Below, piece by piece: positions 17,887 through 55,925 of a stretch of DNA of 64,000 nucleotides. The stretch covers positions 62,001 through 126,000 of the forward strand of contig CALGLU010000041.1 in the NCBI GenBank assembly GCA_937959275.1. Reading direction: 5' to 3'. The notes under the pieces are model-generated. The model did no database searches, was not told the DNA's origin, and saw nothing but the letters and a program-made list of their open reading frames with translations. Position numbers and translations under genes: made by a program. Every line of letters begins with the position of its first letter. Within the stretch, counting starts at the first letter, position 1. The DNA comes from an uncultured Saprospiraceae bacterium (lineage in GTDB: Bacteria; Bacteroidota; Bacteroidia; Chitinophagales; Saprospiraceae).

Positions 17887-18032
17887 TTGAATTTTGTACG
17901 CCGATAGCAAACCTTCATTACATTAAAATCTCAAGTAAACCCTTGATTAATGCCATTGAGTCTAAGTTTGCTTGGATAAGGTCGTTGTTTCTTATTACTC
18001 TATGTATAATGTATAGCTCTATGATATCAACT
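17887..18032. other. Gap before the palindromic element
   Basis: No ORF of note, promoter or terminator was seen in these 146 bases. They lead from the permease stop to the left end of the palindromic repeat. Confidence 0.4.
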
Positions 18033-18197
18033 AGTGTCTCAAGCACTAAATAAATGGCTGTATGAAAGCAGTTATTTTTCGTCTACTCAAGGCACAGGTT
18101 CGCTTTGATAGCCTTAGCTATCAAGGCCGGTTCTGTAACGCAGAGAAGGCGGAAAAGAACAATTTAATATGGCTGTATATTTAGTTCTTGAGGCACT
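18033..18197. repeat. Palindromic element, copy A (165 bp)
   Basis: The two arms (18033-18112 and 18117-18197) are inverted copies along their whole length. The outer 20 bases match at 18 of 20 positions (AGTGTCTCAAGCACTAAATA against AGTGCCTCAAGAACTAAATA) and the apex is GATAGC-ctta-GCTATC. A near-identical copy lies at 55678-55841, with only a few substitutions and a 1-base indel. The flanks here are CT and AG, making CTAGTG...CACTAG. It encodes nothing and sits between two convergent gene ends. It looks like a hairpin-type MITE or a REP/ERIC-like repeat. Confidence 0.85.
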
Positions 18198-18429
18198 AGT
18201 TTCTCCTTCGTTTGGACTTTTTATCATCAAAAAGCTTTGTCTTGCCTCGTTTCATAGACAATTCGCCGTTTTTATCGGTTTTGATCTTATAAGCTTCAGT
18301 TGTCTTACATCCATAGCCAGTTTTACAGCTATTCAAGCTGATTCCAGCTAATATTAGAAAGACGATAAGAGCTGGAACTGTAAGTCCTTTGTCCACTAAT
18401 AATCTACGCTGAGTGAGTTTAAAAGACAT
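18196..18429 (-). CDS. Small lipoprotein, unknown
   Basis: The product has 77 residues. A hydrophobic segment (VPALIVFLILAGISLNSC) ends in a lipobox with Cys35, so the mature lipoprotein is about 43 residues. It is very basic, with a KTGYGCKTTEAYKIKT start and a KKSKRRRN end. Similar tiny 'CKTGYGC'-type lipoproteins are common in Bacteroidota, with no known role. Its TAG stop straddles the right edge of palindromic element A, so the insertion may have trimmed or replaced the original C-terminus. Confidence 0.6.
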   Translation of the reverse strand: MSFKLTQRRLLVDKGLTVPALIVFLILAGISLNSCKTGYGCKTTEAYKIKTDKNGELSMKRGKTKLFDDKKSKRRRN

Positions 18430-55592: not shown

Positions 55593-55925
55593 CTAGTGCT
55601 TTGTCAAATATATATTGACTTGTTGAATTTGAGTGTAGTTTGTGCATGAACTAGGCGCAGGTTTGGTCTGATAGCCAAGTGTCTCAAGCACTAAATAAAT
55701 GGTTGTATGAAAGCAGTTATTTTCGTCTACTCAAGGCACAGGTTCGCTTTGATAACCATAGCTATCAAGGCCGGTTCTGTAACGCAGAGAAGGCGGAAAA
55801 GAACAATTTAATATGGCTGTATATTTAGTTCATGAGGCACTAACTATCAAGGCCGGTTCTGTAACGACGTTCATGTGCAAAATACGCCAAAAGCACTAGT
55901 CAATTTTATTTTGACAAACCACTAG
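55593..55925. mobile_element. Older palindromic element split by a younger one
   Basis: The outer arms (55593-55677 and 55842-55925) are inverted copies: CTAGTGCTTTGTCAAA matches CTAGTGGTTTGTCAAA and the 28-nt ends agree at 23 positions. Both arms run inward through TGCATGAAC/CACATGAAC to the apex parts TGATAGCC and CTATCAAGG. Without the inner copy it would be about 168 nt, the size of element A. Its right arm shares 23 identical bases (CTATCAAGGCCGGTTCTGTA then ACG) with the inner element. Confidence 0.7.
55678..55841. mobile_element. Palindromic element, copy B (164 bp)
   Basis: It is nearly identical to copy A at 18033-18197, with a handful of substitutions and one deleted T. It keeps AGTGTCTCAAGCACTAAATA at the left end and GAGGCACT at the right. 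It sits precisely at the apex of another palindrome. Confidence 0.85.

What the first reader, a model, noticed from the sequence alone, without database searches (positions are those of the whole stretch)
55593..55925. A palindromic element inserted exactly at the apex of another
The outer arms (55593-55677 and 55842-55925) are inverted copies from their CTAGTG ends to the apex, and would make a 168-nt hairpin. In place of its loop sits a 164-bp element almost identical to one at 18033-18197. Inner and outer also share 23 identical bases beside the apex, so they belong to one family. Insertion of a hairpin element into the loop of its relative suggests loop-targeted transposition, as for single-strand transposases acting on REP-like hairpins, or gene-conversion. 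The mechanism is inference; the nesting is seen.
Basis: partly seen in the sequence, partly recalled or inferred. Interest (0 to 1): 0.68.

Follow-up and report, generated by a model that had tools for sequence, protein, structure and literature searches.

The report
Hairpin mini-transposons nested at the tip
Two families of short, gene-less jumping DNA that fold into hairpins share this genome with the IS630-type transposons that probably move them, and one family sits, the same way round in every case found, in the exact tip of the other; insertion is the best explanation, and the single-strand hairpin transposase that was first proposed is not needed.

Summary
The nesting is real and recurrent. 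Outer (A) and inner (B) elements are two MITE families sharing a hairpin core (119 core matches, control 0). B sits in an A-like tip at 15 places (14 if two contig ends are one nest), all in one orientation; 46 A copies lack B there. A single-strand (Y1/RAYT) transposase is not supported. The assembly's only two IS630 (DDE_3) matches carry matching ends: a complete ~1.27 kb element with A-type ends and a cut one with a B-type right end. In Phaeodactylibacter luteus, empty sites carry one CTAN (27 of 28) and 5 filled ones CTAG on both sides, fitting IS630 duplication of TA. The A tip reads CTAG in 33 of 46 copies, so it offers that target. An IS110 element uses the same tips. Against simple repeated jumping: 10 of 10 right junctions read CTAA, no A tip does, and orientation never varies; few insertions followed by recombination between A copies is at least as likely. 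Beyond the finding: the core, with strong covariation, matches 86 of 199 genomes of the taxonomic family, and the plus strand folded better in 32 of 32 foreign loci, arms alone included, pointing to single-strand (RNA-like) constraint.

The parts
55593..55679 (+). Left half of the outer type A element: CTAG flank, TIR TGCTTTGTCAA, arm, left half of core, tip left junction GATAGCCAAG
55680..55839 (+). Inner type B element (TGTCTCAAG...GAGGCA), inserted in the tip of A, same orientation as the outer element; flanks CAAG and CTAA
55844..55925 (+). Right half of the outer type A element: core right half CTATCAAGGCCGGTTCTGTAACG, arm, TIR TTTTGACAAACCA, CTAG flank
18031..18199 (+). Un-nested type B element with CTAG on both sides (TG 18035 to CA 18195)

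Best explanation
A and B are non-autonomous hairpin MITEs of the IS630 (Tc1/mariner-like) kind. Their ends are recognised by IS630 transposases present in the same genome, which insert at TA, preferably inside CTAG, and duplicate the TA. The tip of type A mostly reads GCCTAGCTA, so each such copy offers a target in its middle, and insertion there leaves both A arms pairable. A B element went in there at least once, probably a few times; the nested copy may then also have spread from A to A by recombination between the dispersed arms, which would keep one orientation and one right-hand junction. Shown: family, ends, matching IS630 elements, one-CTAN empty sites against two-CTAG filled sites in a relative, recurrence of the nest. 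Inferred: that these transposases move these MITEs, and how the nested state multiplied.
For: A search of the own assembly for the IS630 domain gives only two matches (7 of 7 candidates scored). One lies in a complete element, CTAG-TGCTCTGTCAAG...CTTGACAGAGCA-CTAG, with two overlapping open frames (166 and 231 codons stop to stop) that match NCBIfam IS630 (50.8 bits, below the 100-bit cut-off, and 108.8, above it) and Pfam HTH_32 and DDE_3; its terminal repeats equal the A ends, and it sits at the CTAG in the right arm of an A copy. The other is cut by a contig end and finishes in TTCTTGATGCACTAG: the B right end TTCTTGAGGCACTAG with one change, and identical to the end of one B copy, L082. 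Empty sites: 27 of 28 empty copies of an unrelated P. luteus repeat have a single CTAN (16 of them CTAG; one has CTGT) where 5 of 5 filled copies have CTAG on both sides. The A tip reads CTAG in 33 of 46 copies. Nested B: 12 left and 10 right junctions, all in one orientation. Of 8 nested right arms compared, 7 are closest to a copy without B.
Against: No excision or insertion was observed. TA duplication is not clean in the nests: left tetranucleotides are CCAG 6, CTAG 3, CAAG 2, CCTG 1 of 12, right CTAA 10 of 10, while 0 of 46 A tips end in AA. A CTAG target is nearly symmetric, so one orientation in every nest is not predicted by independent insertions. Solo copies with an altered left tetranucleotide usually keep CTAG on the right, so left and right do not agree there either. 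The B-type IS630 is seen only as a fragment, and its match to B is 15 nt. No nest of this form was found in 397 other genomes of the family with a strict pattern.
Confidence: 0.8

Rival explanations
1. One or very few B insertions into an A tip, followed by copying of the insert into other A copies by ectopic recombination (gene conversion) through the A arms. This is a variant of the best explanation in which spread is recombination rather than transposition.
For: Right junction CTAA in 10 of 10 and one orientation throughout; nested inner copies form small groups containing no solo copy, L013/L016/L043 and L006/L019/L055, whose outers differ in their right arms where they could be read (subtypes judged by eye); a single nested clade is not rejected (p-AU 0.121); B/A hybrids and arm-to-arm copying (L090, L019) suggest that these repeats recombine.
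Against: The arms are only about 80 bp and differ between copies at several positions; one nest (L203) holds an older B type and the outer of L101 is of type C, so more than one founding event is likely; the best tree needs 6 label changes, although it is weakly supported.
Confidence: 0.5
2. Single-strand hairpin-loop targeting by an IS200/IS605 or RAYT-type Y1 transposase.
For: All nests found have one orientation and could be read as insertions after CNAG with no duplication; the plus strand folds much better than the minus strand; Y1 genes exist in the genome.
Against: 0 of 11 Y1 loci show A/B ends in the held flanks; IS630 elements with matching ends do exist; the filled/empty comparison fits TA duplication, though it would also fit an element that carries CTAG at one end.
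Confidence: 0.07
3. The tip is a general recombination hotspot (hairpin or cruciform breakage or template switching) that takes up many elements, and the B nests are one outcome.
For: An IS110-family element, and a second short element (D), also sit at the same point; B/A hybrids occur.
Against: IS110 enzymes choose targets by sequence (NCBIfam names this one RNA-guided); in the nests with both junctions the right junction falls at the end of B each time, and the left one too except in damaged copies, unlike random breakage.
Confidence: 0.1

Closest known systems
IS630-family elements and their MITEs: IS630 of Shigella sonnei (Tenzen and Ohtsubo 1991; only its title seen, in the reference list of PMC2170065) and ISY100 (PMC2170065, passages read)
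   Same: TIR-bearing short elements, DDE_3 transposase with matching ends in the same genome, TA target inside CTAG, CTAG on both sides at filled sites.
   Different: Long full-length hairpin with a core conserved across genera; recurrent self-nesting at the tip; activity not shown here.
IS elements that target REP palindromes (IS621, ISPpu9, ISPpu10, ISPa11 of IS110; IS1397, ISKpn1 of IS3; PMC1525189, passages read)
   Same: A palindromic repeat used as landing site; the IS110 element of this genome behaves this way at these tips (6 of 6 right ends found).
   Different: Here the palindrome is itself an IS630-type MITE, and another MITE of the same superfamily lands in it.
Nested MITEs of plants (carrot DcSto, PMC3695323, passages read; Jiang and Wessler 2001, cited there, not read)
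   Same: MITEs inserted in members of their own or a related family, with TA duplication.
   Different: No fixed position at a hairpin tip and no fixed orientation were mentioned in the passages read.
Correia/NEMIS elements of Neisseria (recalled; PMC2229807 seen only in search listings)
   Same: From recall: about 100-160 bp hairpin MITEs with TA duplication that can act as RNA hairpins.
   Different: Different ends and core; I did not compare their strand bias.
IS1272 'inverted-repeat-replacing' transposition (PMC5678879, abstract read)
   Same: Inverted repeats act as target, and equal flanking duplications are missing.
   Different: By its title and abstract that mechanism replaces the target inverted repeat; here both A arms are kept.

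Membership tests
IS630-related MITE | Terminal inverted repeats shared with an IS630 element of the same genome | tested here: met
   Type A: complete IS630 element with the same ends. Type B: right end of a cut IS630 element, one change in the terminal 15 nt; its left end is not in the assembly stretch held.
IS630-related MITE | TA target duplicated (within CTAG) | tested here: met
   Met in a relative, not in the nests. P. luteus: 27 of 28 empty sites with one CTAN, 5 of 5 filled sites with CTAG on both sides; an element carrying CTAG at one end would look the same. In the own-genome nests the two flanks do not match each other.
IS630-related MITE | Too short to code for a transposase | tested here: met
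   About 160 nt between ends.
IS630-related MITE | Mobilised by that transposase | not testable with these tools
   needs an experiment
REP/REPIN with RAYT, or IS200/IS605 (PATE) | Cognate Y1 transposase gene flanked by the repeat | tested here: not met
   0 of 11 Y1 loci with A/B ends in the held flanks, up to about 1.5 kb each side.
REP/REPIN with RAYT, or IS200/IS605 (PATE) | Insertion without target duplication | tested here: inconclusive
   Filled and empty sites in P. luteus fit either a TA/CTAG duplication or an element carrying CTAG; own-genome nests show unequal flanks.
Known RNA family (Rfam 15) | Score above a family's gathering threshold | tested here: not met
   0 matches in the window. 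In four loci with hairpins of types A, E and two foreign ones, at E up to 10, the only match over its threshold was a tRNA gene away from the hairpin.

The most novel reading that the evidence does not exclude
The hairpins form a superfamily spread through a bacterial family (named relatives are Saprospiria), in which the plus-strand single-stranded molecule, most simply an RNA, is under selection over the whole hairpin: a 63-nt core with a conserved GGUUC/GGUUC internal mismatch and covarying stems, carried on IS630-type ends that change from genus to genus, with the tip used as a docking site by an RNA-guided IS110 and by sister MITEs that leave the hairpin intact.
Probability: 0.4. Interest if true: 0.75.

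Novelty: new variant of a known kind. Interest (0 to 1): 0.52.

Why it matters
It turns an odd nested palindrome into a testable system: a transposase type, a defined TA/CTAG target at a hairpin tip, and a second unrelated recombinase (IS110) that uses the same tip. It also brings out a hairpin superfamily, for which my searches found no description, with a conserved, strand-biased core; that raises the question why IS630-type MITEs should be selected as single-stranded structures. For genome readers it shows that fixed orientation and fixed junctions need not mean single-strand transposition.

Tried and rejected
Exact core scan of genome contigs found nothing (own genome may be left out there). 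Empty sites in the two genus mates could not be used: the matching stretches around the outer element are 65-77% identical and the spacer that holds it did not align. Flank-against-flank BLAST in the held own DNA: 72 copies, output cut; in the part seen, and in the follow-up of 13 copies, the contiguous matches were the nests and self or tandem matches, with no clean empty site for a solo copy. Y1 transposases as partner: not supported. Group II intron reading: considered from the GTG start and lack of duplication, dropped because of size and the IS630 partner. Gene orientation: of 53 copies the left neighbour points at the element in 38, the right one in 30 of 50; contexts read through on the plus strand (13) against the minus strand (7) are not convincing (neighbours are bare open frames), so I do not claim a 3'-UTR role. 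Nests in other genomes: 0 of 397 with a strict pattern that fits only CACTA ends, and none among 57 core right halves in 95 fetched foreign loci (its one 'orphan' is a diverged core). Of the 500-shuffle measures for the core, 'further standard pair types' was reached by 69 shuffles, so it does not support the structure; the others do. Literature: searches listed no title or abstract start describing these elements in Saprospiraceae or tip-nested bacterial MITEs; subscription papers are mostly not in that library. PMC8024623 (passages) had nothing on IS630 targets.

Full report
Observation. The window holds an outer inverted repeat at 55593-55925 with a second hairpin element exactly at its tip, and a near copy of the inner one at 18031-18199. 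The outer arms score 63 as inverted copies against a maximum of 40 in 1000 shuffles. The inner element is 160 nt from TG (55680) to CA (55839), flanked by CAAG and CTAA.

Family. The tract beside the tip, CTATCAAGGCCGGTTCTGTAACG, occurs 119 times (3 mismatches or fewer) in the own genome of 6.79 Mb in 144 contigs, with 0 for the reversed control; the listing was cut at about 100. Of 111 core entries read in fetched stretches, 46 are A on both sides, 38 B on both sides, and 27 mixed, cut or not classed. These are assembly places: many lie at contig ends, so a real copy may appear as two ends, and at least one place was entered twice. A: CTAG-TGCTCTGTCAAG...tip...CTTGACAGAGCA-CTAG, the tip reading CTAG in 33 of 46. 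B: CTAG-TGTCTCAAG...TTCTTGAGGCA-CTAG. A BLAST with B alone gave 57 match rows, with 40 of 143 candidates scored.

Nests. In the held own DNA 12 left junctions and 10 right junctions of B in an A-like tip were found (two of its 14 left rows and 17 of its 27 right rows are other matches, dropped by reading). They make 15 places: seven with both junctions (window, L006, L016, L018, L019, L101, L102), five with the left one only (L203, L055, L021, L024, L090), three with the right one only (L013, L043, L064). L203 and L064 are contig ends broken at an IS110 inside B and could be two sides of one nest, which would make 14. Some are damaged: L102 lacks the left half of B, L090 is B-left fused to A-right, L024 keeps only a piece of B, L021 has lost the right half of the outer. 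All have the same orientation. Left tetranucleotides: CCAG 6, CTAG 3, CAAG 2, CCTG 1; right: CTAA 10 of 10. Of 46 A copies without B, 45 end in AG before CTATC and none in AA. Eight nested right arms were compared with 46 others: they fall in several subtypes by eye, and 7 of 8 are closest to a copy without B. L101 sits in a type C outer. Inner copies form small exclusive groups, but a tree of 38 B copies, 10 labelled nested, is weak: 6 label changes, a single nested clade not rejected (p-AU 0.121). L203 reads A, then B, then IS110.

Partner. Of 11 Y1 matches none has A/B ends in the held flanks. A search for the IS630 domain found two matches. L039:1553-2825 is a complete element of about 1.27 kb with A-type ends; it sits at the CTAG in the right arm of an A copy, and the contig ends just after it. 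Its two overlapping frames match NCBIfam IS630 (50.8 bits, below the 100-bit cut-off, and 108.8, above it) and Pfam HTH_32 and DDE_3. The other match, at a contig end, is followed by TTCTTGATGCACTAG, a B-type right end. That a frameshift joins the two frames is recalled knowledge of this family, not shown.

Target. In G122, identified as Phaeodactylibacter luteus by matching contig lengths, five fetched copies of a relative of these elements sit in another repeat, one of them (L262) as a tandem pair. A search with the joined flanks listed 40 matches (40 of 709 candidates scored). Thirty were fetched and gave 29 parses: 28 empty sites (CTAG 16, CTAA 7, CTAT 4, CTGT 1) and one left-end remnant; all five filled copies have CTAG on both sides. 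This fits IS630: ISY100 duplicates TA (PMC2170065, passages read), and the title of Tenzen and Ohtsubo 1991, seen in its reference list, states preference for TA in CTAG. The sequence alone cannot separate TA from CTAG duplication, or from an element carrying CTAG at one end. The A tip mostly has CTAG, so it is a possible target; the P. luteus tip (CCCGAG) has no TA, which may be why no nest was seen there. Held own DNA has 2,676 CTAG, about 15,600 if scaled to the genome, so even a few independent tip hits are many; this is rough because the held stretches are rich in elements.

Other users of the tip. An IS110-family element (NCBIfam 'RNA-guided'; Pfam) has its 6 right ends found all at such tips: 5 next to a core right half, and the sixth (L133) with an A left half on its other side. 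Its junctions read TAG|GTACTGTG on the left (L133, L135, L203, L226) and GGTAAAAG|CTATC on the right. A short element D sits at the same point in L060 and L092, and an inverted D fragment lies at the corresponding place in L065.

Superfamily. A 63-nt covariance model of the core matches 86 of 199 genomes of the taxonomic family (own genome included), in 56 of 112 genera, at E up to 0.001, with at most 26 candidates scored per genome. No match was found in the two genus mates. A pattern scan of named genomes listed 80 of 111 stretches before its limit, all with titles of Saprospiria (Phaeodactylibacter, Lewinella, Aureispira, Saprospiraceae or Saprospirales MAGs), most of them P. luteus; that the window's genome belongs there too is inference. 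On 45 distinct aligned cores 91.6% of cells pair (shuffled 75.2%), covariation score 0.441 (shuffled 0.152; slid structures 0.067-0.110), pairs with both sides changed 13 (shuffled 10.1), further pair types 41 (shuffled 38.3, reached by 69 of 500); the alignment was fitted to the model, which favours it. The plus strand folds better in 73 of 73 full A/B copies (related copies) and in 32 of 32 loci from other genomes, also with the core removed (mean -41.1 against -30.8 kcal/mol for the arms), with 6.7 G-U pairs on the plus and 2.6 on the minus strand; some of the 32 come from one genome or genus. Strand-biased mutation could contribute, but selection on a single strand, RNA or ssDNA, is the simplest reading. 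No Rfam family matches the hairpins.

Verdict. Nested IS630-type MITEs at a CTAG tip: the kind is known; this arrangement and the conserved core did not appear in the searches made. Repeated insertion and spread by recombination cannot be told apart with these data.

Noticed in passing
L133:149-1318 and ends in L130-L135, L203, L226: An IS110-family (RNA-guided type) element whose 6 right ends found all lie at the tips of these hairpins; in L203 it adds a third layer.
   Followed up: partly
L060:122-333, L092, L065: A short element D (CTACTGTGA...GATTCCAAAG) containing REP-like TCAGCCTGAAGGGCTGA units also lies at the same tips; its left end resembles that of the IS110 element.
   Followed up: no
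L069:400-425: A tip with GTAAAAG left between the two halves, looking like a scar of the IS110 right end.
   Followed up: no
L121:1018-2347: Array of TCATCAGCCTGAAGGGCTGAGATTC palindromes around a Y1 transposase gene, possibly a REP/RAYT-like locus.
   Followed up: no
L177, L185, L191:8269-8433: A third hairpin subfamily (E); in two of the three copies CATAG/CTATG replaces GATAG/CTATC in the tip stem, and in L185 CGTAG/CTACG does: compensatory changes.
   Followed up: partly
L019:1650-1676: The right end of the inner B carries the left-end sequence, as if copied across the hairpin from the other arm.
   Followed up: no
L277-L306: An abundant repeat in P. luteus (40 matches listed, 40 of 709 candidates scored) that serves as insertion site for the hairpin elements at its CTAN.
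   Followed up: partly
L019:1390-1422, L040:1128-1175, L024, L025, L045: Very short end-only derivatives (about 30-50 bp) and head-to-tail elements sharing one CTAG.
   Followed up: no
L039:1553-2825: The complete IS630 element itself is nested in this family: it sits at the CTAG in the right arm, not the tip, of an A copy.
   Followed up: partly
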